NCBI GenBank assembly: GCA_016290665.1
Contig: JAEEUW010000013.1
Span: forward strand, 1 to 35,181
Length of the DNA stretch: 35,181 bases
Direction: 5' to 3'
DNA from: Clostridiaceae bacterium
GTDB lineage: Bacteria; Bacillota; Clostridia; Oscillospirales; Acutalibacteraceae
A program made the position numbers and the translations under genes. The notes beneath the pieces are model-generated. The model was given only the letters and a program-made list of their open reading frames with translations. It was not told the DNA's origin and did no database searches. Every line of letters begins with the position of its first letter. Position 1 is the stretch's first letter. Positions 18,467 to 33,061 of the stretch are shown here, one piece after another.

Positions 18467-19687
18467 ATGAAACAGCGCCTGAAATGGATTGCGTTCTGCG
18501 TGATGGTGCTTGCCGTCGTGGTGTTTGCCGCGTTTGCACTGGGCTACCGTCTGGACATGCTGCCCGACGTTTCGCACCCCGTGCAGCCGGCGCAGACCAC
18601 GGCCCCGCGCGAGACCTTCGCCTCCGTGGAGGTCCGCGATTATCTTGCCGACGACGCCACGGTGCGCCCCGTGGGCCGCACGCTTTTCTATGACGACGTG
18701 CGCTGGTTTTCCATGTCCGGCTGCGGCGTGGAGTTCTCGTGCGTTGCCGAATGGGCCGAGGTCACGCTGACCGTGGCCCAGTCCTATGCGGTGGCCTATA
18801 ACCACCGCCCGCGCGTGGCCGTGTTCGTCAACGGCACGATGACGGACGAAGCGACGCTGGATCAGGAGTTCACCACAATCCGGCTCGACCTTTCCTCGGT
18901 GGAAGGGGAGGCGGTTGTCAAGGTGATCAAGCTGACGGAATCGATGTATTCCTGCGCCGGCGTGTCGGGCATCCGCGTCTGCTCCGCCTCCTCCGTGGCG
19001 CCCACGCTGCAGCCCGATATGCTGCTGGAGTTCATCGGCGATTCCATCACCGCCGGCTACGGGCTGGACGCCCCGAACGAATGGGGCCAGTTTTCCACCC
19101 GCACCGAAAACTACATGGGCACCTATGCCTATCTGACCGGGCAGGCGCTCGGCGCCGAAAGCTATGCCATCGCCTTTTCCGGCTACGGCGTGCTCAGCGC
19201 GTTCACCGACAACGGCGTGATCCGCCCCGACTATGTGCTCTCCAAGCGCTACGACAAAACGCTGACCACGCTCATCTTGCCGCCCGAGGTCAGCGACGTC
19301 TGGACCTTTGAGCGGCCGAAGCCGACCATGATCGTCATCAACCTCGGCACGAACGACGCCTCCTATTGCTACACGGCCGACCGCCGCGCCGCCTTTGTGC
19401 AGGCCTACGTGGAGCTGCTGCGGCTGGTGCGCGGCTATAACCCCGGCGTGCCGATCATCTGCGTGCTGGGCGACATGAACAATTCCATGTTCCCCTATAT
19501 TGAGCAGGCGGTCGCCCAATTCCGCAGCGAGACCGACGACACGATGGTGACCACCGCCACGCTGTCGTTTGAGATGGAACGCCTGGGCGCCACGACCAAC
19601 GGCCACCCGAACCGCAATTCCAACGAGCTGGCTGCCGAAACGCTGACACGCTTCCTGTGGCAAACGGCGCTGGGCGCGGCCCAATAA
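18467..19687 (+). CDS. Membrane-anchored or secreted SGNH esterase, CE2-like
   Basis: A 406-residue protein. Residues 7-26 form a hydrophobic signal or N-terminal anchor. A beta-rich domain (about 50-180) precedes a SGNH hydrolase domain (about 185-400), the order seen in carbohydrate esterase family 2. Block I is FIGDSITAGYG with nucleophile Ser193, block III is INLGTNDASYCY, and the catalytic His lies in TNGHPNRNSN. CE2 enzymes remove acetyl groups from plant polysaccharides, which would fit with the secreted glycoside hydrolase at 7756. Export follows from the N-terminus; substrate is inferred from the family. ATG 18467 has AAAGGAGG 7 nt upstream. It ends at a bidirectional terminator shared with the first small-peptide gene. 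Confidence 0.85.
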   Translation: MKQRLKWIAFCVMVLAVVVFAAFALGYRLDMLPDVSHPVQPAQTTAPRETFASVEVRDYLADDATVRPVGRTLFYDDVRWFSMSGCGVEFSCVAEWAEVTLTVAQSYAVAYNHRPRVAVFVNGTMTDEATLDQEFTTIRLDLSSVEGEAVVKVIKLTESMYSCAGVSGIRVCSASSVAPTLQPDMLLEFIGDSITAGYGLDAPNEWGQFSTRTENYMGTYAYLTGQALGAESYAIAFSGYGVLSAFTDNGVIRPDYVLSKRYDKTLTTLILPPEVSDVWTFERPKPTMIVINLGTNDASYCYTADRRAAFVQAYVELLRLVRGYNPGVPIICVLGDMNNSMFPYIEQAVAQFRSETDDTMVTTATLSFEMERLGATTNGHPNRNSNELAAETLTRFLWQTALGAAQ

Positions 19688-19727
19688 AACAAAAAGAGTA
19701 CGGACTGTTCCCGTACTCTTCTTTTTT
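19686..19727. terminator. Bidirectional terminator, CE2 esterase and small peptide A
   Basis: AAGAGTACGG (19694-19703) pairs with CCGTACTCTT (19711-19720). CTTTTTT follows on the plus strand, and the AAAAA/AAAAC before the stem gives a T-run on the minus strand. Confidence 0.88.
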
Positions 19728-19745
19728 GCTCTTCGCTGAATGCGA

Positions 19746-19901
19746 TCAGCCCAGCGTCTCGTCCGTGATGCCGAACAGATCAAGCGCGCCGTTGATTCTG
19801 CGCTGGAACAGCGAAAGAATACGCGGGGCAGCGCCGTTGTTGTCATAGGCGTTGATCAGGGTGATGAGAATGTTGAAAAAGCTGTTGATTGCACTTACCA
19901 T
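19746..19901 (-). CDS. Small peptide A of the amphipathic peptide array (51 aa)
   Basis: An unrecognised 51-residue peptide, starting MVSAINSFFNILITLINAY and ending DLFGITDETLG. Ribosome binding site AAGGAG lies 8 nt before the ATG. Residues 4-19 form a hydrophobic, nearly uncharged helix; the middle (AAPRILSLFQRRINGALDLFG) is a second, cationic amphipathic helix. There is no n-region/cleavage pattern of a Sec signal. Promoter candidate TTGCCT-N17-TAAGAT at 19978-19950; terminator at 19686. It is the most divergent member and the last of the seven-gene minus-strand array. Coding is supported by the clean promoter-RBS-ORF-terminator layout rather than by homology. Confidence 0.68.
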   Translation of the reverse strand: MVSAINSFFNILITLINAYDNNGAAPRILSLFQRRINGALDLFGITDETLG

Positions 19902-19949
19902 AATGATATCTCCTTATCGTGTTGTCAAAATGTGGTTTGCTTTGGCTAT

Positions 19950-19978
19950 ATCTTAACATACCGGAAAGAAAAAGGCAA
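19950..19978 (-). promoter_or_regulatory. Promoter candidate of small peptide A
   Basis: Minus strand: TTGCCT (19978-19973), 17-bp spacer, TAAGAT (19955-19950). Confidence 0.55.
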
Positions 19979-20042
19979 GGGAAGCGCCGCAAAAAGGTTT
20001 TGTCACTTTTTGAACTTTTTGTCAACGCGTTGCCGGGATAAC

Positions 20043-20064
20043 AAAAAAAGTCGGTTGCCCGACT
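20043..20064 (-). terminator. Terminator of small peptide B
   Basis: AGTCGG-GCAA-CCGACT read on the minus strand (20064-20049), then seven T. Nearly the same hairpin ends gene C. Confidence 0.82.
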
Positions 20065-20085
20065 CTTTGCGCAAAGATTGTCTAA

Positions 20086-20256
20086 TTATTTGGCTGCGTC
20101 TGCAATGGCGTCAACGATCCCCATTGCGCTGTCCAGATAGGGCTTGTAGGGCGCTTCCTCTTCGCTTTTGAAGACGCCCAGACCGACAAACACTTTTGTC
20201 AGGAAGGAAATGAAAGCGTTGAAGATGGCTTTGTAATCCAGATTCTTGAGATCCAT
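20086..20256 (-). CDS. Small peptide B of the amphipathic peptide array (56 aa)
   Basis: A 56-residue peptide of unknown family. Start MDLKNLDYKAIFNAF, with AAAAGGAGG upstream. Residues of about 8-30 form a hydrophobic amphipathic helix (IFNAFISFLTKVFVGLGVF), then an acidic linker (KSEEEAP), then a C-terminal helix with YLDSAMGIVDAIADAAK. It aligns with peptide D over F..L..F, a Pro after the acidic linker, Y..D and VDA near the end, and has the same length as C and F. No signal peptide. Own promoter (20304-20332) and terminator (20043-20064), so it is a self-contained unit. Confidence 0.78.
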   Translation of the reverse strand: MDLKNLDYKAIFNAFISFLTKVFVGLGVFKSEEEAPYKPYLDSAMGIVDAIADAAK

Positions 20257-20303
20257 GATGGTTCCTCCTTTTCAAGATTTGAGACCAATCGGTTCATACG
20301 CCC

Positions 20304-20332
20304 ATTCTATCACAGAAGAAGCGGAAAAACAA
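20304..20332 (-). promoter_or_regulatory. Promoter of small peptide B
   Basis: Minus strand: TTGTTT (20332-20327), 17-bp spacer, TAGAAT (20309-20304). Confidence 0.65.
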
Positions 20333-20348
20333 TACTTTTCTTGAAAAA

Positions 20349-20374
20349 ACAAAAAAGTCGGTTTCCCGACTTTT
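20349..20374 (-). terminator. Terminator of small peptide C
   Basis: AAAAGTCGG-GAAA-CCGACTTTT on the minus strand, followed by more T. The AGTCGG/CCGACT core is the same as in the terminator of peptide B. Confidence 0.88.
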
Positions 20375-20389
20375 TGTGCACAAAAAATC

Positions 20390-20560
20390 TTAGTCTTTGA
20401 ACGCGGCAACAGCTTCATCATAGATCTTCTGGCCAAGCTGTTTGTACTCGTCCAGGTCGATGCCTTCGAACTTCTTGCTGAGCTTGTCACCAAGCAGGTC
20501 ACCGAGAAGCGTGCTCAGGAAAGCATAGAAAGCCTTGAAAATACCCATGTACTTATCCAT
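20390..20560 (-). CDS. Small peptide C of the amphipathic peptide array (56 aa)
   Basis: A 56-residue peptide of unknown family, beginning MDKYMGIFKAFYAFLSTLL, with AAGGAGG upstream. Residues 5-23 form a strongly amphipathic, aromatic-rich helix; GDLLGDKLSKK is a basic stretch; GIDLDE is an acidic linker; the C-terminal helix contains YKQLGQKIYDEAVAAFKD. An upstream in-frame extension of 29 residues exists but overlaps the promoter, so ATG 20560 is chosen. Same length and plan as B and F. Own promoter (20607-20635) and terminator. Confidence 0.8.
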   Translation of the reverse strand: MDKYMGIFKAFYAFLSTLLGDLLGDKLSKKFEGIDLDEYKQLGQKIYDEAVAAFKD

Positions 20561-20606
20561 TACAATATCCTCCTTATTAGATTTGGAAAAGAATTTCCAT
20601 GGCCGT

Positions 20607-20635
20607 ATTCTATCACAATGATCACAAAAATGCAA
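20607..20635 (-). promoter_or_regulatory. Promoter of small peptide C
   Basis: Minus strand: TTGCAT (20635-20630), 17-bp spacer, TAGAAT (20612-20607). Confidence 0.7.
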
Positions 20636-20681
20636 GGGGTTTGTCAAAAATAATTCAAATTTTGTTTATAAAACGGAAAAG

Positions 20682-20703
20682 AAAAAAGCCGCAAAGCGGC
20701 TTT
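20682..20703 (-). terminator. Terminator of small peptide D
   Basis: AAAGCCGC and GCGGCTTT form an 8-bp stem around a 3-nt loop (minus strand), followed by TTTTTTC. Confidence 0.85.
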
Positions 20704-20716
20704 ATCATTTGGGCAA

Positions 20717-20872
20717 TCAGCCGCGCGCGGCGTCGATCACGGTGTTGGCGTCCTGATAATACTGCATGAGGACGTCGGGCATTTTGCTGTCTTCACCGAA
20801 GATCTTGAGATCTTTGAACATCTGAAACAGGAAGTTCAGAATAGACGTAATCAAATCTCTGAATTTATCCAT
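20717..20872 (-). CDS. Small peptide D of the amphipathic peptide array (51 aa)
   Basis: A 51-residue peptide of unknown family: MDKFRDLITSILNFLFQMF (amphipathic helix), KDLKIFGEDSKMP (turn with acidic residues and Pro), then VLMQYYQDANTVIDAARG (C-terminal helix). It aligns best with B. RBS AAGGAGG lies close to the ATG. A weak promoter candidate (TTGTTC-N17-TTTAAT, 20923-20895) sits directly upstream, but gene E has no terminator before it, so E and D may also be co-transcribed. Terminator at 20682-20703. Confidence 0.78.
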   Translation of the reverse strand: MDKFRDLITSILNFLFQMFKDLKIFGEDSKMPDVLMQYYQDANTVIDAARG

Positions 20873-20894
20873 GAATGATTCCTCCTTTGAAAGA

Positions 20895-20923
20895 ATTAAA
20901 CTGAAGGGATGTCAGAAGAACAA
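20895..20923 (-). promoter_or_regulatory. Weak promoter candidate of small peptide D
   Basis: Minus strand: TTGTTC (20923-20918), 17-bp spacer, TTTAAT (20900-20895). The -35 matches consensus only in its first half and the leader would be very short. Confidence 0.35.
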
Positions 20924-20932
20924 CTGGCCTTT

Positions 20933-21118
20933 TTAGAAAACGCTAAGAATGTTATCAATTGCTTCCCTAATAGTACCTTTTTCGCCTTCTTTGTCTTCGC
21001 CGATGTCTCTGGCAAAGTTGAAGTCGATGCGGTCACCGGTAAAGTTCCAAAGAATGAAAACCTTCGCCAGAATTCTGAACACCTCATAAAAACCGTTCTT
21101 GATCGTATTGAAATCCAT
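20933..21118 (-). CDS. Small peptide E of the amphipathic peptide array (61 aa)
   Basis: A 61-residue peptide of unknown family, the longest of the set: MDFNTIKNGFYEVFRILAKV then FILWNFTGDRIDFNFARD, an acidic/basic hydrophilic stretch (IGEDKEGEKG) and a short C-terminal helix (TIREAIDNILSVF). ATG 21118 follows AAGGAGG; an upstream in-frame ATG would overlap that site and is rejected. The N-terminal helix is amphipathic with aromatic residues; no cleavable signal is evident. Own promoter (21155-21183), no terminator of its own, so transcripts probably run into gene D. Confidence 0.75.
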   Translation of the reverse strand: MDFNTIKNGFYEVFRILAKVFILWNFTGDRIDFNFARDIGEDKEGEKGTIREAIDNILSVF

Positions 21119-21154
21119 TATGTTTCCTCCTTGCATATAGTTTTCTGCTTACAT

Positions 21155-21183
21155 ATCATACCATATCTCATTTGAAAATACAA
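21155..21183 (-). promoter_or_regulatory. Promoter of small peptide E
   Basis: Minus strand: TTGTAT (21183-21178), 17-bp spacer, TATGAT (21160-21155). Confidence 0.65.
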
Positions 21184-21230
21184 GAGGTTTTTATAAAATT
21201 GAATTATTTTTGAAAAAGGCAAAACGGACA

Positions 21231-21260
21231 AAAGAAAAAGACCGGCGAACCGGTCTTTTT
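21231..21260 (-). terminator. Terminator of small peptide F
   Basis: Minus strand: AAAAAGACCGG-TTCG-CCGGTCTTTTT, a perfect 11-bp stem with a TTCG loop and trailing T-rich sequence. Confidence 0.9.
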
Positions 21261-21273
21261 CATTTTGACTCAA

Positions 21274-21444
21274 TTAGTCTTCGAACGCACCAGCGATTTC
21301 AGTAAGGCCGTCCTTGATAGCATCATAGTTTTCACCAGTCAGGTCGAATTCGGGTTCGTCGATCTTGAAGATCGCGAAAATCGCCTTCAGGATTTTGATG
21401 AGGTTCGAAGCGATGGTGTCGAGTTTGTCAATGTACTTGCTCAT
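21274..21444 (-). CDS. Small peptide F of the amphipathic peptide array (56 aa)
   Basis: A 56-residue peptide of unknown family. The N-terminal half, MSKYIDKLDTIASNLIKIL and KAIFAIF, is a lysine-rich amphipathic helix. It is followed by an acidic linker with Pro (KIDEPEFDLTGE) and a C-terminal helix (NYDAIKDGLTEIAGAFED). Same length and plan as B and C, with a cationic first half and an anionic second half. RBS AAAGGAGG. Own promoter (21498-21526) and a very strong terminator. Confidence 0.8.
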   Translation of the reverse strand: MSKYIDKLDTIASNLIKILKAIFAIFKIDEPEFDLTGENYDAIKDGLTEIAGAFED

Positions 21445-21497
21445 GGGGATATCCTCCTTTAAAAATAGTGTGTTGAGATCTCACTCCCACGGTCAAT

Positions 21498-21526
21498 ATT
21501 GTAACACATTGTTTACAAAAAATCAA
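21498..21526 (-). promoter_or_regulatory. Promoter of small peptide F
   Basis: Minus strand: TTGATT (21526-21521), 17-bp spacer, TACAAT (21503-21498). Confidence 0.65.
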
Positions 21527-21734
21527 CAGTTTTTTACCGGAATACTGCACAAAAGGAACGATTCTCTTTTAGGCATTTTGACGAAAAGCACGGGGCTTTT
21601 CCACGAAAACAGCCGTCTTTTCCAATCCGGAAGATTGATTCGCTGCCGTTTTCGCCTCTTTTTGACGTCTGCAGGGCAGCTTTTGCGCCGAAAAACAGCG
21701 CCGAAGCGGTGAGCAGTCATTCAAGGGCCGAAAG

Positions 21735-21759
21735 AAAAACGGCCGCCGGAGCAGCCGTT
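21735..21759 (-). terminator. Terminator of small peptide G
   Basis: AACGGCTGC pairs with GCGGCCGTT (one mismatch) on the minus strand, followed by TTTTC. The 200 bp between here and the promoter of F (21527-21734) hold no convincing gene. Confidence 0.75.
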
Positions 21760-21772
21760 CTCTTTCGGTTCC

Positions 21773-21907
21773 TTATTCTTCGGTTTTGCCGAGGCTACCA
21801 AGCACGTTCTTCAGCGCGTCGATCACTTTTGCGATCGTGTCGTTGTCGCTGCCGAGGGTCTTGATCAGGCCAAGGATCTGATCAACCAGCGTCTTGAGAA
21901 AATCCAT
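21773..21907 (-). CDS. Small peptide G of the amphipathic peptide array (44 aa)
   Basis: A 44-residue peptide of unknown family and the clearest amphipathic design of the set. MDFLKTLVDQILGLIKTLG has hydrophobic residues at 3, 4, 7, 8, 11, 14, 15 and 18; after a GSDND turn, a second helix (TIAKVIDALKNVLGSLG) shows the same spacing, then KTEE. Two amphipathic helices in 44 residues recall beta-type phenol-soluble modulins of staphylococci in size and form; no sequence homology is claimed. RBS GGAGG. Own promoter (21961-21989) and terminator. First gene of the array. Confidence 0.8.
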   Translation of the reverse strand: MDFLKTLVDQILGLIKTLGSDNDTIAKVIDALKNVLGSLGKTEE

Positions 21908-21960
21908 ACTGTATGTTCCTCCGTAAAATAGAATATGAACATCCCTGTTCACTTGCCCAT

Positions 21961-21989
21961 ATTTTAACACAGGAAAGCCGAAAAAGCAA
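21961..21989 (-). promoter_or_regulatory. Promoter of small peptide G
   Basis: Minus strand: TTGCTT (21989-21984), 17-bp spacer, TAAAAT (21966-21961). Confidence 0.65.
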
Positions 21990-22073
21990 GCAACTTCGCG
22001 AGAATTCACAGTTTGTTCGCCTTTTCATGAAACCGCCGTCAAGCGAAACACAAAGTTGACAGGGGAGGGCCTG

Positions 22074-22232
22074 CCGTCCCCGTCCGCGCCGGCGGATGGG
22101 GACGGGGTCATGGAGCCTGGTTGCCGCCAACCTTGCAGCGGTCGGCCCATGGCCGACTGGGGTTATGCGTTTAACCCAAGCAGCCCATGGGGCTGCCGCT
22201 ACAAGCGTTTCCCGCCAACGCTGCGCGGCGGG
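22074..22232. repeat. Run of six hairpins between the peptide array and alaS
   Basis: Six stems follow each other in about 160 bp: 22074-22105 (14 bp with one G-T pair and a GCCG loop), 22119-22132 (GGTTG/CAACC), 22141-22157 (GTCGGCC/GGCCGAC), 22160-22177 (GGGTTA/TAACCC), 22180-22196 (GCAGCCC/GGGCTGC) and 22211-22232 (CCCGCC/GGCGGG). The stretch is GC-rich, has no convincing ORF, and no T-run follows any stem. It could be a non-coding RNA gene, a REP/MITE-like mobile palindrome cluster, or a transcription boundary. I do not recognise it. Confidence 0.55.
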
Positions 22233-22283
22233 CGGTTGCCATGCCGCCCCCATCTTTCCTCCATCCCTTTTTTGCCTTTTCCC

Positions 22284-22312
22284 TTGACAAATCCCCCCAC
22301 AGCGTGTAGAAT
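22284..22312 (+). promoter_or_regulatory. Promoter of the alaS T-box leader
   Basis: Consensus TTGACA (22284-22289), 17-bp spacer, TAGAAT (22307-22312), placing the transcript start near 22319. Confidence 0.85.
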
Positions 22313-22318
22313 ACTCTA

Positions 22319-22556
22319 TGTTATAATAACAAAGGCTTTGAGAAAGAAGCGCTGCGGCTTCGGCCTTCAGAGAGTGCGCCCCACGGCTGCAAGGGCGCGC
22401 AGGCCCGTGTCCGCTGCGTGCCGCTTTTGAGCCGCCGCCGAAAGGCGTGCCGTATCCCGGCGTTAACGGGGCAAAGTGGTGCTTTTTGCACAAGCCGGGT
22501 GGTACCGTGGGCCGTCGCTCACCCCGGTGTGCAGGGGCGTCATTTATTTTTTTCTA
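22319..22556 (+). promoter_or_regulatory. T-box riboswitch (alanyl-tRNA responsive)
   Basis: A T-box leader controlling alaS by tRNA charging. AGAGAG at 22369-22374 begins the distal part of stem I, with TGCGCCC (22375-22381) pairing to GGGCGCG (22393-22399). The 14-base T-box spans about 22494-22510 and contains GGGTGGTACCGTGG; its TGGT bulge would pair with the ACCA end of uncharged tRNA-Ala. The likely specifier is GCT at 22413-22415 (Ala codon), inferred from position. An imperfect hairpin with CACC/GGTG (about 22511-22538) followed by a T-rich run to 22555 is the terminator form. Low charged tRNA-Ala should stabilise the antiterminator and raise alaS expression. Confidence 0.88.
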
Positions 22557-22578
22557 ATGGAAAGGAAGACACACACCG

Positions 22579-25218
22579 ATGGAATGGATGGGACTCAACG
22601 AAATCCGCGAAAAGTATCTCCGGTTCTTTGAAAGCAAGGGCCACCTGCGCCTGCCGAGCTTTTCGCTGGTGCCGCAGAACGACAAGAGCCTGCTGCTGAT
22701 CAACGCCGGCATGGCGCCGCTCAAGAAATACTTCACGGGCGAGCTGACCCCGCCGCGCACGCGCGTGACCACCTGCCAGAAATGCATCCGCACGCCCGAT
22801 ATCGAGCGCGTGGGCATCACGGCGCGCCACGGCACCTATTTTGAAATGCTGGGCAACTTCTCGTTCGGCGATTACTTCAAGCACGAGGCCTGCCCCTGGG
22901 CCTGGGAGTTTTGCACGAAGGTCATGCAGATGCCCGTGGACAAGCTCTGGGTCACGATCTATCAGGACGACGACGAAGCGTTCGACATCTGGACGAAGGA
23001 GGTCGGCGTTGCGCCCGAGCGCATCGTGCGTCTGGGCAAGGAAGACAACTTCTGGGAGCACGGCGCCGGTCCCTGCGGCCCCTGCTCCGAGATCTACTTT
23101 GACCGCGGCGAAAAATACGGCTGCGGCAGCCCGACCTGCGGCCCCGGCTGCGACTGCGACCGCTACACCGAATTCTGGAACCTGGTGTTCACCCAGTTCG
23201 ACAACGACGGGGCAGGCAACTACAGCCGCCTCAAGAGCTGCAACATCGACACCGGCATGGGCCTGGAGCGTCTGGCCTGCATCATGCAGGGCGTGGACAA
23301 CCTGTTTGAGGTGGACACCGTGCAGAACATCATGAAGCACGTGATCCGCATCGCCGGCATCAACTATCACGACGACCCGCAGAAGGATATCTCCCTGCGC
23401 GTCATCACCGACCATATCCGCTCCACCACGTTCATGATCGGCGACGGCGTTATGCCCTCCAACGAGGGCCGCGGCTACGTGCTGCGCCGTCTGCTGCGCC
23501 GCGCCGCGCGCCACGGCAAGCTGCTCGGCATCGACCGTACCTTCCTGTATGAGGTCTGCGAAACCGTTATCAATGAGAACAAGAACGCCTATCCGAACCT
23601 CGAGGAAAAGCACGACCTGATCGTCAAGGTCATCAGGGCCGAGGAGGAATCCTTTGCCCGCACCATCGACACCGGCATGGCGCTGCTGCGGGACCTGCTG
23701 GCTTCCATGGACGGCACGGTGCTTTCCGGCGCGGACGCCTATAAGCTGCAGGACACCTACGGCTTCCCGATCGACCTGACCAAGGAGCTGCTGCAGGAAA
23801 AGGGCTACACCGTGGACGAGGACGCCTTCCGCGCGCTGGTCAAAGAGAACCGCGAACGCACCCGCGCCGCCCGCAAGGACGCCGGCGCGGAGGCCTGGAA
23901 GGGCGGCGGCGCCGCGCTGAAGGACCTGCCCGCCACGGCCTTCTGCGGCTATGAAACGCTGCGGTGCGACGGCACGATCCTCGCCGTGCTGATGGACGGC
24001 GAACGCGCCGAAGGCGTGGGCCGCGACGACGAAGCCGCGCTGATTCTGGACGCCACGCCCTTCTATGGCGAAAGCGGCGGCCAGGTCGGCGACAAGGGCA
24101 CGATCGCCGCGGGCGATGCGGTCTTCACCGTGCAGTCCGTTACCAGAACGGCCGACGGTCTGTTTTTGCACCACGGCGTCTTGACGGCGGGCGACGACCT
24201 TGCCGTGGGCGACAGAGTGACCGCGTCCGTGAACAAAGAGAGCCGCGACGCGACCAGACGCAACCACACGGCTGCCCATCTGCTGCAGGCTGCTTTGCGG
24301 CAGGTGCTCGGCTCCCACGTGGAGCAGGCCGGCCAGCTCGTGGACGCGCACGTCATGCGCTTCGATTTCGTCCACTTCTCGGCCATGACGGGCGAAGAGC
24401 TCCGGAAGGTGGAGACCATCGTCAACGAAAAGATCCTCGAAGCGATTCCGGTGGAAACGCGCGAAATGCCGATCGAGGAGGCCAAGGCCATGGGCGCCAT
24501 GGCTTTGTTCAGCGAAAAATACGGCGACGTGGTGCGCGTGGTCCGGGCGGGCGATTTCTCCGTTGAGCTCTGCGGCGGCACCCACGCCGAAAATACGGGC
24601 AATCTGGGCCTGTTCAAGATCGTGTCGGAATCCTCGGTCGCCGCGGGCGTGCGCCGCATCGAGGCCGTGACCGGCCTCAACGCGCTGCAGTATGTGAACG
24701 ACGCGCTCGGAACCATCGACGACGCGGCCGCCGCGCTCAAGATCGCCAACGGCAAGGAGCTGGTCTCCCGCGCCGCGGGCGTGATGGCGGAGCTGAAGGC
24801 GAAGGACCGCGAAATTGAAAAGCTCTCCGGCCAGATCGCTTCTGCCAAGGCGCAGAGCATGCTTGACAGCGTGACCGAGGTCGGCGCCGTGAAGCTCGTG
24901 ACCGCCTTCCTTGCCGATACCACGGTGGACGAGCTGCGCAAAATGTGCGACCTTGTCAAGAGCAAGGGCGACGATTACGTCGGCGTGATCGGCGGCGTCC
25001 AGAAGGCCAAGGGCAGCGGGAACATCTGCGTCTGCTGCGGCAAGGCGGCGATTGCCGCGGGCGCCCACGCGGGCAACCTGGCCCGCGCCGCGGCCCAAAG
25101 AGCCGGCGGCTCCGGCGGCGGCAAGCCCGACATGGCCATGGCCGGCGCCAAGAACATCGACATGCTGCCCGAGGCGGTGAACGCCGCCGCGGCGCTGCTG
25201 AAAGATATGCTGCATTAA
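22579..25218 (+). CDS. alaS: Alanyl-tRNA synthetase
   Basis: An 879-residue class II synthetase of full bacterial length. Order: catalytic domain (motif 1 around INAGMAPLKKYF, motif 2 near RHGTYFEMLGNFSFGDYFK, motif 3 GRGYVLRRLLRRAARH), tRNA-recognition domain, editing domain with zinc site HTAAH (in RNHTAAHLLQ) and CGGTHAENTG, and a C-terminal C-Ala domain starting near residue 730 with a coiled-coil-like lead-in. It charges tRNA-Ala and clears Ser- and Gly-tRNA-Ala. The ATG follows AAAGGAAG about 10 nt upstream and the T-box leader. The HIT gene starts 12 nt after the stop, so it is in the same transcript. Confidence 0.98.
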   Translation: MEWMGLNEIREKYLRFFESKGHLRLPSFSLVPQNDKSLLLINAGMAPLKKYFTGELTPPRTRVTTCQKCIRTPDIERVGITARHGTYFEMLGNFSFGDYFKHEACPWAWEFCTKVMQMPVDKLWVTIYQDDDEAFDIWTKEVGVAPERIVRLGKEDNFWEHGAGPCGPCSEIYFDRGEKYGCGSPTCGPGCDCDRYTEFWNLVFTQFDNDGAGNYSRLKSCNIDTGMGLERLACIMQGVDNLFEVDTVQNIMKHVIRIAGINYHDDPQKDISLRVITDHIRSTTFMIGDGVMPSNEGRGYVLRRLLRRAARHGKLLGIDRTFLYEVCETVINENKNAYPNLEEKHDLIVKVIRAEEESFARTIDTGMALLRDLLASMDGTVLSGADAYKLQDTYGFPIDLTKELLQEKGYTVDEDAFRALVKENRERTRAARKDAGAEAWKGGGAALKDLPATAFCGYETLRCDGTILAVLMDGERAEGVGRDDEAALILDATPFYGESGGQVGDKGTIAAGDAVFTVQSVTRTADGLFLHHGVLTAGDDLAVGDRVTASVNKESRDATRRNHTAAHLLQAALRQVLGSHVEQAGQLVDAHVMRFDFVHFSAMTGEELRKVETIVNEKILEAIPVETREMPIEEAKAMGAMALFSEKYGDVVRVVRAGDFSVELCGGTHAENTGNLGLFKIVSESSVAAGVRRIEAVTGLNALQYVNDALGTIDDAAAALKIANGKELVSRAAGVMAELKAKDREIEKLSGQIASAKAQSMLDSVTEVGAVKLVTAFLADTTVDELRKMCDLVKSKGDDYVGVIGGVQKAKGSGNICVCCGKAAIAAGAHAGNLARAAAQRAGGSGGGKPDMAMAGAKNIDMLPEAVNAAAALLKDMLH

Positions 25219-30397: not shown

Positions 30398-31987
30398 ATG
30401 AAAAAACTGCTTTCCCTTTTCCTGGCGCTGTGTCTGCTGCTGACCGTCACGGTCCCGGCCTTCGCCGCTGAGGAAAAGCCCCGCCCGATGATCTATATCG
30501 AGGGGCAGGGCATCTATCTGTATACGGACGACGGCACCATGGTCTATGACCTGGGCATCAACATCTTGGACCGGATGAAGCCGCGCATCAAGGACTTTGT
30601 CAAATATGCGCTGCTCAACGCGGTCACGGGCAACTCCAAGCCGTTCTGCGACCTGATGTATGACACGGTCGTGCCCGCCTATGAGGCGGAAAAGCTCGGC
30701 AAGGACGGCATGCCCCGCGACGGGTCGCACGTGCACCCGAGCAACATGTGGCGCGGGCAGGGCAAGCTCGACAACATCCGCACGACGATCCCGATGACCG
30801 GGGGCAGAAGCTATCCCGTTTTCCGCTGGCATTACGACTGGCGGCTGTCGCCGATCACGCTGGCGGATGAGCTGCACGATCTGATCGAAGCCGTTCTGCA
30901 GGATACGGGCGCTTCCAGCGTCGATCTTTCGTCGCGCTGCATTTCCACCAACATCGTCTATGCCTATCTGTATAAATATGGCCCCGACAAGGTGAACAGC
31001 AGCACCTTCTATGCGTCTGCGCTGCACGGCATCGGCGCCGCGAACGCGCTGTTCACCGGCAACGTCGTGATCGACCCCGACGCTGCGGAGCGTTTTCTGA
31101 CCTTCTACCGCGACTGGAACGACCTCGTGATCCGCGACGAGCCGACCACGGACCTGATCTTTTCGCTGGTCTATCTCGCCAACAGGATGAAGCTGCTGGG
31201 GCTCGGCGTCGACGTCATCACAAAGGCCTTCGACCGGATGAAGAGCGACGTGCTCGTGCGCATCCTGCGCGATTCGTTCGCCACCTATCCCGGCTATTGG
31301 TCCATGGTCTCCGCCGATCAGTATGAGACCGCGCGCAGTTTCGTGTTCGGCGACGCCGGAGAGGAATGGGAAGGCCTTTTGGAAAAGATCGACGCCTACC
31401 ATGCCATGCAAACGCAGATGGACGACTATCTGCGCTCCGTCAGCGATCGGGTGCGCATCGGCGTGGTTGCAAAATACGGGTTCCCGAACTATCCGTTGTC
31501 GGAGGATGCGGCGGAGGAGAGCGACGGCTATGTGGCAACGCGCTTTGCCTCGCTGGGCGCCGTCTGTGCCGACACGGACAAGACGCTGTCCGACAGCTAT
31601 ATCCGCGCCGCCGTGCAGAACGGCAGGGGACGGTATCTGTCGCCCGACTGCAAGATCGACGCCTCCGCTTCGCTGTTCCCCGAAACGACGTGGTTCGTCA
31701 AGGACCTCTACCACACCTATTTCCCCGACTGCGTCAATGATCTGCTGGTCGCGTTTGCCGTCAGCGACGGCATGACGGTGGACAGCGATCCCGCGTTTAC
31801 CCGCTATCTCCAGTTTGAAGCGACCAACGACGCGGGCTCCGATTACACGACGGGCACGCTGACGCCGATTCGCTCCATGGCGGATACCCACGACGGCAGC
31901 GAAGCCTACCGCCGCACCTTCCTGGACGTGCTGCGCGACTTCTTCCGGGCCCTCGGCGCTTTGCTGAAAGGTCTGTTCCGGCGGTAA
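30398..31987 (+). CDS. Secreted alpha/beta-hydrolase-like protein, LCAT-like, Cys at nucleophile position
   Basis: A 529-residue secreted protein; residues 1-23 are a signal peptide (MKKLLSLFLALCLLLTVTVPAFA). The central part resembles the lecithin:cholesterol acyltransferase branch of alpha/beta hydrolases: FRWHYDWRLSP (144-152) is like the DWR segment of LCAT. At the nucleophile elbow, where GHSMGG is expected, the sequence reads SSRCISTN (178-185), placing Cys181 where the Ser normally is. Asp421 (in KIDASASLFP) and His439 (in KDLYH) are possible triad partners, as inference. The final 23 residues (TFLDVLRDFFRALGALLKGL...) form a cationic amphipathic helix like the array peptides. RBS AGGAGG. 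Enzyme activity and substrate are unknown. Confidence 0.72.
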   Translation: MKKLLSLFLALCLLLTVTVPAFAAEEKPRPMIYIEGQGIYLYTDDGTMVYDLGINILDRMKPRIKDFVKYALLNAVTGNSKPFCDLMYDTVVPAYEAEKLGKDGMPRDGSHVHPSNMWRGQGKLDNIRTTIPMTGGRSYPVFRWHYDWRLSPITLADELHDLIEAVLQDTGASSVDLSSRCISTNIVYAYLYKYGPDKVNSSTFYASALHGIGAANALFTGNVVIDPDAAERFLTFYRDWNDLVIRDEPTTDLIFSLVYLANRMKLLGLGVDVITKAFDRMKSDVLVRILRDSFATYPGYWSMVSADQYETARSFVFGDAGEEWEGLLEKIDAYHAMQTQMDDYLRSVSDRVRIGVVAKYGFPNYPLSEDAAEESDGYVATRFASLGAVCADTDKTLSDSYIRAAVQNGRGRYLSPDCKIDASASLFPETTWFVKDLYHTYFPDCVNDLLVAFAVSDGMTVDSDPAFTRYLQFEATNDAGSDYTTGTLTPIRSMADTHDGSEAYRRTFLDVLRDFFRALGALLKGLFRR

Positions 31988-32155: not shown

Positions 32156-33061
32156 TCAGTTGGAAAGATACTGTGCGCAGTAGTTCGACACCGCTTCGCT
32201 GTATTCCGAGCTTTGCATGAGGTCGATCTTGAAGCTGTGGTCGGAGTTCGGGAAGCTCACAAGCGTATGGGCAACGCCGTTGCGGGCCAGCGAGGCTTCC
32301 AGCGCCTGCAGGTTGGCGTAGGGAACCTGCGCGTCGTTTACCGCATAAGCGGCGATGGTCGGCGTTTTGCCGAAGACGCGCGCCTTGTCGAGCACGTTGA
32401 CGGGCGAAACGGAGGCGGAAGCGTTCTTGGCGGAATCGGTGTTGTTTTCAAACCCTGCGGCGGTCAGCTTCAGGCCGGAGAGAGCGCCCACAAGCGCGGC
32501 AAAATCGGCGGCGGAGTAGATGTTCTTCCAAAGGTCATAGGACAGATCGGCCGGCGCGCCCTTGACCGCAACAAACTGGGGCGTCAGCGTGGTGTAGGCC
32601 GCGTAGCCGTAGGCGTACATCAGCGCGTAATAGCCGCCCGCGCCGTTGCCCGAAAGCGCCAGCTTTTTCAGCGTGATGCCGTGGTCCGCGGCGGTCTGCT
32701 TCAACGCGCTGATCGCGTCCGTAATCTCGCCCATAACGGTTTCCACCAGCTTGGACGAACCGCCGAACAGCGTGTAGTCCATGCTCGCCGCCACATAGCC
32801 CTTGTTGGCGATGATCTGGCAGTCGTTGTCCATGTCGCCGCGGGAGCCGTCCTTGAAATTGCCGTCGTGCAGGAACAGCACGGCCGAGCCGTTGCCGGAA
32901 AGATCCTTGGGCAGATAGACGTCCATGACCTGCGAAGCGCCGGTGCCGTATTTGACGGCGTCGATCTTGTCAAAATGCTTGACGGCGATGCCCCACGAGG
33001 TGAGCAGCGGCATCAGAAGGCTCATGAGAAAAGAAACGATGCGTTGAATAAACCCTGACAT
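32156..33061 (-). CDS. Alpha/beta-hydrolase-fold protein with Ser-to-Gly at the nucleophile
   Basis: A 301-residue protein of the esterase/lipase (HSL-like, BD-FAE-like) group. It has VMDVYLPK and LFLHDGNFKDGS (oxyanion-hole region, HDG instead of HGG), the elbow LALSGNGAGGYYAL, a likely acid Asp in YAVNDAQVPY, and a likely His in SDHSFK. The elbow normally reads GxSxG; here residue 140 is Gly (GGC codon), so the catalytic Ser is missing and the protein may be inactive or repurposed. The N-terminus (MSGFIQRIVSFLMSLLMPLL) is an amphipathic helix with no classical signal cleavage site, much like the small peptides at 19746-21907. Own promoter (33104-33132); RBS AGGAGG. Confidence 0.82.
   Translation of the reverse strand: MSGFIQRIVSFLMSLLMPLLTSWGIAVKHFDKIDAVKYGTGASQVMDVYLPKDLSGNGSAVLFLHDGNFKDGSRGDMDNDCQIIANKGYVAASMDYTLFGGSSKLVETVMGEITDAISALKQTAADHGITLKKLALSGNGAGGYYALMYAYGYAAYTTLTPQFVAVKGAPADLSYDLWKNIYSAADFAALVGALSGLKLTAAGFENNTDSAKNASASVSPVNVLDKARVFGKTPTIAAYAVNDAQVPYANLQALEASLARNGVAHTLVSFPNSDHSFKIDLMQSSEYSEAVSNYCAQYLSN

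What the first reader, a model, noticed from the sequence alone, without database searches (positions are those of the whole stretch)
19746..21989. Array of seven tiny genes for amphipathic, leaderless peptides
Seven minus-strand ORFs of 44-61 codons follow one another with strong AAGGAGG-type ribosome binding sites, each starting with a hydrophobic amphipathic helix and lacking a classical signal peptide. I recognise no family. Form and size recall phenol-soluble modulins or leaderless bacteriocins, but no transporter, immunity or modification gene is adjacent. Such short genes are usually missed by annotation, so a widespread peptide system could be hidden here. The layout is seen directly; the membrane-active role is inference.
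Basis: partly seen in the sequence, partly recalled or inferred. Interest (0 to 1): 0.9.

Follow-up and report, generated by a model that had tools for sequence, protein, structure and literature searches.

The report
Hidden arrays of amphipathic mini-protein genes
Seven tiny genes in a row in a gut bacterium are, at least mostly, real genes for short acidic helical peptides, and related species carry many similar, mostly different, rows of them; what they do is not known, but they look made to sit on membranes or other oily surfaces, perhaps like staphylococcal surfactant peptides.

Summary
The seven ORFs are where stated; shuffles of the stretch give 0.17 such ORFs on the richer strand, at most 2. 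Five of seven have orthologues under purifying selection; over 30 pairs dN/dS is 0.07-0.47. Most genes of the set have their own terminator (70 of 86; 2.4 expected) and about half a good sigma-A-type promoter (45 of 86; 4.6 expected). Six of seven genes are collinear in one related species. At least 18 of 34 genomes of the genus, and 10 genomes of 7 other genera, have such genes; the window's genome has a second array. The peptides are 31-64 aa, Cys-free, 81 of 86 net negative, without visible signal peptide; two were modelled, as two helices each. None of the seven passes a Pfam or NCBIfam cut-off; one peptide elsewhere in the genome just passes PSMalpha. Best reading: lineage-specific leaderless peptides working at interfaces, PSM-like in build, not shown to be PSMs or bacteriocins. 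Secretion and membrane activity are inferred. The same genomes carry cationic amphipathic helices at the C-terminus of large, apparently secreted proteins.

The parts
21773..21907 (-). p1, 44 aa; most conserved type, 3 copies in this genome
   Evidence: orthologues at 80 and 66% identity, dN/dS 0.19 and 0.32; 15 copies in 8 of 34 genomes at E<1e-5, 12 of them rows of the profile itself and one cut by a contig end; AlphaFold helices 2-18 and 22-42, pLDDT 78.8, pTM 0.43
21274..21444 (-). p2, 56 aa
   Evidence: orthologue in L039, 31/54 identical, dN/dS 0.39
20933..21118 (-). p3, 61 aa; probably one transcript with p4
   Evidence: positional orthologues in L038 and L039 with only a weak third-position excess, 26 against 19/18 and 28 against 22/18; no terminator found after it and 60 bases to p4
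20717..20872 (-). p4, 51 aa
   Evidence: orthologue in L039, 19/51 identical, dN/dS 0.35
20390..20560 (-). p5, 56 aa; no orthologue found
   Evidence: no close relative in genome contigs or viral contigs, and none better than E 0.1 in 33 congeners; belongs by place and gene signals only, no conservation test possible
20086..20256 (-). p6, 56 aa
   Evidence: orthologues in L038 and L039, dN/dS 0.29 and 0.31; AlphaFold helices 8-25 and 38-55, pLDDT 69.5, pTM 0.41
19746..19901 (-). p7, 51 aa
   Evidence: orthologue in L039, 36/51 identical, dN/dS 0.47; weaker-RBS orthologue in L038 seen by eye
21961..21989 (-). promoter-like site of p1: TTGCTT-17-TAAAAT, TG before the -10
   Evidence: score 9, under the limit of 10 used for the count
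21498..21526 (-). promoter-like site of p2: TTGATT-17-TACAAT, TG before the -10
   Evidence: score 10
21155..21183 (-). promoter-like site of p3/p4: TTGTAT-17-TATGAT (8 of 12)
   Evidence: read by eye; below the scanners' thresholds
20607..20635 (-). promoter-like site of p5: TTGCAT-17-TAGAAT, TG before the -10
   Evidence: read by eye; chose an overlapping site (score 11)
20304..20332 (-). promoter-like site of p6: TTGTTT-17-TAGAAT, TG before the -10
   Evidence: score 9, under the limit of 10
19950..19978 (-). promoter-like site of p7: TTGCCT-17-TAAGAT, TG before the -10
   Evidence: score 9, under the limit of 10
21736..21761 (-). terminator-like site of p1
21234..21261 (-). terminator of p2
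20685..20703 (-). terminator of p4
20352..20375 (-). terminator of p5
20045..20068 (-). terminator of p6
19691..19723 (-). terminator of p7

Best explanation
The array is one locus of a lineage-specific family of mostly separately transcribed small genes. Each makes a peptide of about 50 aa without a recognisable signal peptide, usually acidic and Cys-free, with (in the two modelled) two helices, the first usually amphipathic. I think the peptides work at a water/lipid or water/solid interface at or outside the cell surface, as surfactant-, matrix- or enzyme-retaining peptides in the manner of phenol-soluble modulins (among them LspU, which traps lipases at the cell surface), and not as classical cationic bacteriocins. 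Shown: genes, selection on the reading frame, signals, composition, spread. Predicted: the two-helix form. Inferred: export, binding at interfaces, the role.
For: Purifying selection in 30 orthologue pairs. 7 ORFs against a mean of 0.17 in shuffles. 70 of 86 with a terminator and 45 of 86 with a promoter of score 10 or more, against 2.4 and 4.6 expected (of the window's seven, six have the terminator and two reach that promoter score). 86 peptides: no Cys, 81 net negative, 72 with a maximal 19-residue Kyte-Doolittle mean under 1.6, 71 with a second residue expected to leave the first Met in place (that Met rule is recalled). Hydrophobic moment above shuffles in four of seven. Two-helix models of p6 and p1. 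Among 23 Pfam families matched by any of 64 peptides at E<=0.1, PSMalpha (best), the staphylococcal AgrD peptide and an aurein-like antibiotic peptide are three of the first five by E-value. LspU as precedent (PMC12607899, passages and introduction).
Confidence: 0.45

Rival explanations
1. Multi-peptide leaderless bacteriocins or other antagonism peptides: a changing set of membrane-active peptides aimed at competitors.
For: No recognisable leader; small; many divergent paralogues whose set differs between species; sub-threshold aurein-like match of p1 (17.3 against 20.6 bits).
Against: 81 of 86 net negative, whereas aureocin A53 is described as highly cationic with five Trp (PMC11580447, passages); mostly one gene per transcript; no peptide exporter or immunity gene recognised by eye near 18 other loci (one, L108, has an ABC ATPase that looks like a sugar/nucleoside importer 2.3 kb off); orthologues under purifying, not diversifying, selection.
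Confidence: 0.2
2. Intracellular small proteins that bind the cell's own membrane or a membrane protein (regulators, envelope-stress or curvature peptides).
For: No signal peptide seen and no exporter recognised nearby; acidic; purifying selection; some arrays lie next to membrane transporters or channels (by eye: aquaporin-like gene in L106 and L112, a sodium-symporter-like gene in L112).
Against: Arrays of up to eight divergent paralogues that differ between species are unusual for a housekeeping regulator.
Confidence: 0.17
3. Soluble helical hairpins that pair with a partner, for example the cationic amphipathic tails of secreted proteins in the same genomes.
For: Two-helix models; free peptides average -3.8 net charge in the 80-peptide list, 30 collected tails +2.4; tail profile matches in 34 of 34 congeners at E<=0.1.
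Against: No direct link shown; the tails were collected with a filter that required amphipathicity; sortases are present in 34 of 34 genomes, so the tails are not the only possible anchoring route.
Confidence: 0.13
4. Toxins of type I toxin-antitoxin pairs.
For: Small hydrophobic peptides in repeated units; some promoter-like sites on the opposite strand.
Against: Only 14 of 86 reach the usual transmembrane hydrophobicity; Shine-Dalgarno/start region as open as in shuffled sequence, 0.48 against 0.47, so no sign of a hidden RBS; none of the type I toxin families known to me by name is among the 23 Pfam families matched.
Confidence: 0.04
5. Chance ORFs.
For: p5 has no orthologue, p3 only weak ones.
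Against: Shuffles, selection and terminators; 0 of 117 strong-SD small ORFs in 1.235 Mb of other alaS loci pass the amphipathicity filter.
Confidence: 0.01

Closest known systems
Phenol-soluble modulins of staphylococci (PSMalpha, PSMbeta; also the recent LspU)
   Same: Leaderless, short, amphipathic helical peptides in several paralogues; PSMbeta is about 43-45 aa as p1 is 44; one peptide elsewhere in this genome just passes the Pfam PSMalpha cut-off; LspU is encoded beside a lipase gene as this array lies beside a GDSL esterase gene.
   Different: Different lineage; lengths 31-64 aa; arrays of up to eight divergent genes, mostly with one promoter and terminator per gene; no PSM exporter known here; none of the seven matches a PSM model.
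Leaderless class II bacteriocins (aureocin A53, lacticin Q type)
   Same: No leader; about 50 aa; helical (recalled for the bacteriocins).
   Different: Acidic instead of cationic, few Trp, no neighbouring peptide transport or immunity genes recognised.
Type I toxin peptides
   Same: Small, hydrophobic, multicopy units (recalled).
   Different: Not hydrophobic enough for a membrane span in 72 of 86; strong RBS with no sign of being hidden; no antisense partner known.
Catalogues of microbial small proteins (GMSC, sORFdb, gut smORF studies)
   Same: Such catalogues may well hold some of these ORFs as anonymous entries.
   Different: Seen only as search listings; the catalogues themselves were not searched.

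Membership tests
Phenol-soluble modulins | Leaderless, amphipathic, helical small peptides | tested here: inconclusive
   No signal peptide by inspection (no predictor run); moment significant in 4 of 7; helical models of two
Phenol-soluble modulins | Sequence match to PSM family models | tested here: not met
   0 of the window's seven match a PSM model (E<=5, filters drop most above 0.1); over 64 peptides PSMalpha is matched by 2, one above cut-off by 0.4 bit, both outside the window
Phenol-soluble modulins | Size classes of 20-25 or 43-45 aa | tested here: not met
   31-64 aa over 86 peptides, mean 50; of the seven p1 alone, at 44 aa, fits
Phenol-soluble modulins | Export by Pmt/AbcA-type transporters | not testable with these tools
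   needs mutants and proteomics; the genome was not searched for such transporters
Leaderless bacteriocins, aureocin A53-like | Highly cationic core peptide | tested here: not met
   81 of 86 net negative, 3 neutral, 2 positive
Leaderless bacteriocins, aureocin A53-like | Match to a family model | tested here: not met
   among the Pfam and NCBIfam matches of 64 peptides at E<=0.1 the only antibiotic-peptide family is the sub-threshold aurein-like one
Leaderless bacteriocins, aureocin A53-like | Transport/immunity genes in the cluster | tested here: inconclusive
   none recognised by eye, apart from an importer-like ABC ATPase in L108; not every neighbour was scanned against a library
Leaderless bacteriocins, aureocin A53-like | Antibacterial activity | not testable with these tools
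   needs peptides
Type I toxins | Single transmembrane hydrophobic segment | tested here: not met
   14 of 86 reach 1.6 on the 19-residue Kyte-Doolittle scale; of the window's seven only p6 does, 1.86
Type I toxins | Antisense RNA antitoxin | not testable with these tools
   needs RNA-seq

The most novel reading that the evidence does not exclude
In this bacterial family amphipathic helices are a general currency of the cell surface: cationic helices at the C-terminus of many large secreted proteins, helix-like N-termini on esterases, and many free acidic two-helix peptides from autonomous gene arrays. Together they may form a non-covalent surface assembly (a helix lattice or surfactant film) that holds secreted enzymes near the cell and on plant particles, beside sortase.
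Probability: 0.15. Interest if true: 0.88.

Novelty: new variant of a known kind. Interest (0 to 1): 0.7.

Why it matters
If the reading holds, a group of largely uncultured gut bacteria makes large, fast-changing sets of surfactant-like peptides that curated family libraries hardly describe. It would show PSM-like peptides outside staphylococci, give a testable handle on how rumen bacteria keep secreted enzymes close, and add a source of new membrane-interacting peptides. Even without a function, at least 18 of 34 genomes of one genus hold a class of genes that the libraries searched here do not name, but for one marginal match.

Tried and rejected

Selection in the counts: the 86-peptide list was made by a filter on Shine-Dalgarno match, length, moment, Cys and Pro (80 kept); I dropped 2, changed the start of 1, and put back 8 that failed the filter, among them p5 and p6. 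Orthologues of close species are all counted, so rows are not independent. The 18 of 34 rests on loci I looked at, not on whole-genome scans, and is a lower bound. The 10 genomes outside the genus were accepted with a laxer Shine-Dalgarno limit (5 of 7). The 78 control loci are not proven to lie outside the genus: none of their contig lengths equals that of a congener's alaS contig, but congeners go down to 80% alaS identity; and they cover only alaS surroundings.
Full report
OBSERVATION. The window is contig C97 of a 2.34 Mb, 156-contig genome assembly, 85% complete. Seven ORFs of 44-61 codons follow one another on the minus strand between a GDSL/SGNH esterase gene (18467-19687, plus strand) and alaS (22579-25218, plus strand; named by eye). 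Five have a 7/7 and two a 6/7 match to AAGGAGG. In 300 dinucleotide shuffles of 19688-22578 the richer strand held 0.17 such ORFs on average and 2 at most; observed 7. Six of the seven have a promoter-like site of the form TTGnnT-17-TAnnAT: four chosen by the scan (p1, p2, p6, p7; only p2 reaches the score of 10 used for the count below) and two read by eye (p3, p5). A terminator follows all but p3, so p3 and p4 are probably one transcript.

RELATIVES. Synteny was the key. Upstream of alaS, G017 has six and G029 eight such ORFs by the strong-RBS filter; G017 also has a p7 orthologue with a weaker RBS. Against G029 the best pairings of p1, p2, p3, p4, p6 and p7 run in the same order; p5 pairs with nothing, and G029 has members of its own. 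Against G017 only p1, p3 and p6 pair clearly (p7 by eye), and the best score of p2 is out of order. G007, G027, G010 and G030 have other peptides near alaS. A profile of 24 peptides over 34 genomes of the genus pointed to further loci; I read 20 stretches chosen for short frames, and they showed more arrays, among them a second one of five genes in the window's own genome (L103), and a solitary gene there (L102). Counting, at least 18 of 34 genomes of the genus have one or more such ORFs. A profile of 64 peptides matched 35 of 250 family genomes (the window's and three congeners among them) at E<=0.05, but many matches lie inside long proteins; among the loci read, 10 genomes of 7 other genera show short, RBS-preceded amphipathic ORFs, one with five in a row. 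In 295 genomes of the order the same profile found, besides the window's genome, only frames of 117 aa or more in five genomes, and in 9 genomes of named or other relatives only frames of 166 aa or more.

CONTROL. The other 78 alaS loci,123 bases, hold 117 strong-SD small ORFs, of which none passes the amphipathicity filter. With a laxer SD limit (5 of 7) ten pass, and they look like chance. Limits of this control are told under Tried and rejected.

SELECTION. Thirty orthologue comparisons in 24 groups give dN/dS 0.07-0.47 and pooled pN/pS 0.40, with most changes at third positions as a rule. For the window's genes: p1 0.19 and 0.32, p2 0.39, p4 0.35, p6 0.29 and 0.31, p7 0.47. p3 shows only a weak third-position excess, and p5 has no orthologue.

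THE PEPTIDES. The 86 listed peptides are 31-64 aa (mean 50) without Cys (absence of Cys was a criterion of the list); 81 are net negative, 3 neutral, 2 positive; 14 reach 1.6 on the 19-residue Kyte-Doolittle scale. Within the window's seven the N-terminal moment exceeds shuffles clearly in four. AlphaFold gives two helices for p6 (8-25, 38-55; pLDDT 69.5) and p1 (2-18, 22-42; pLDDT 78.8), with low pTM (0.41, 0.43). The gene signals are strong in the set: terminators 70 of 86 (2.4 expected), promoters of score 10 or more 45 of 86 (4.6 expected), 33 of the 45 with a TG before the -10. Codon usage does not point to very high expression.

FAMILIES. Of ten peptides scanned first, the seven of the window included, none passes a Pfam or NCBIfam cut-off. 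Of 64 scanned as a set, PSMalpha is the best Pfam match (2 members, best 5.5e-5), followed by AgrD, SelK_SelG and the aurein-like family; NCBIfam gives two PSM-alpha models at 0.001 and 0.032, the former its lowest E-value. The PSMalpha match above cut-off is L102:5950-6087, in the window's genome but on another contig, through residues 21-36. With 64 scans such a value is not overwhelming; I read it as shared helix chemistry, not as proof of kinship.

NEIGHBOURS. Reading by eye the ORFs beside 18 other loci shows no shared transporter or immunity gene; most are unrelated household genes. Membrane transport genes do occur: an aquaporin-like gene next to the peptides in L106 and L112, a sodium-symporter-like gene in L112, a potassium-transport-like gene in L118 and an importer-like ABC ATPase in L108. 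In L107, L108 and L119 an XRE-type regulator and a signal-peptide-bearing protein of about 135 aa with helical stretches precede the free peptides; the two of these proteins that I scanned match no Pfam family at E<=0.001.

TAILS. Large proteins of the same genomes, several with a visible signal peptide, end in a cationic amphipathic helix. A rough scan for signal peptide plus such an end gave 11 rows, of which three are lactate-dehydrogenase-like proteins (by eye) and clearly false; further cases came up as profile matches. A profile of seven such tails matches 34 of 34 genomes of the genus at E<=0.1, with 12 matches in the window's genome, rows of the profile included. Of 30 loci read, the script called 26 C-terminal, but two of these (L245, L264) came from a wrong choice of ORF, leaving 24; of the four called internal, three (L237, L239, L247) were also wrong choices. 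One search shows C-terminal tails in these three and in L264, which makes 28 of 30; L249 is truly internal and L245 unresolved. Thirty distinct tails, collected with a filter for amphipathicity, average +2.4 net charge. Some alpha/beta hydrolases of about 300 aa and a phosphatase-like protein begin with a hydrophobic helix and no classical signal peptide; these may be ordinary signal anchors. Whether tails and free peptides have to do with each other is unknown.

MECHANISM AND VERDICT. What is shown is a family of real small genes, mostly in autonomous units. What is inferred is that the peptides act at interfaces. The nearest working model is that of PSMs, in particular LspU, an amphipathic peptide encoded next to a lipase gene, reported to be exported by the PSM transporters and to trap lipases at the cell surface (PMC12607899; passages and introduction read). 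Classical leaderless bacteriocins, described as highly cationic for the type member (PMC11580447; passages read), fit less well. I give the interface reading 0.45.

ORGANISM. Two congeners agree in contig length and alaS identity with records: G007 (goat omasum MAG RGIG2800) and G028 (RUG11928, titled Ruminococcaceae bacterium). Better-known relatives in that list are Clostridium sporosphaeroides and Eubacterium coprostanoligenes; that this is the GTDB family Acutalibacteraceae, and a rumen genus throughout, is recalled or inferred, not from a call.

Noticed in passing
window 31889-31984 (+), end of the ORF 30398-31987; loci L236-L265: Cationic amphipathic helix at the very C-terminus of many large, apparently secreted proteins; profile matches in 34 of 34 genomes of the genus at E<=0.1. 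I recall no name for it and saw none in the listings of searches.
   Followed up: partly
window 32156-33061 (-); L066, L067, L070, L218, L084: Alpha/beta hydrolases (BD-FAE type in the window) and a phosphatase-like protein begin with a hydrophobic helix without classical signal peptide; perhaps signal anchors.
   Followed up: partly
L107:3708-5356, L108:1182-2035, L119:2427-3982: XRE-type regulator followed by a signal-peptide-bearing protein of about 135 aa with amphipathic stretches (in L107 and L119 also a Cys-rich secreted protein with an amphipathic C-terminus), before free peptides.
   Followed up: partly
G000:C154 (L103:5794-7609) and G000:C141 (L102:5950-6087): Second array and a solitary peptide gene in the window's own genome; the p1-like gene of the array is divergent to the other four.
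   Followed up: yes
window 30398-31987 (+): 529-aa protein with signal peptide, no Pfam match at E<=0.001; similar-looking proteins in L110 and L121.
   Followed up: no
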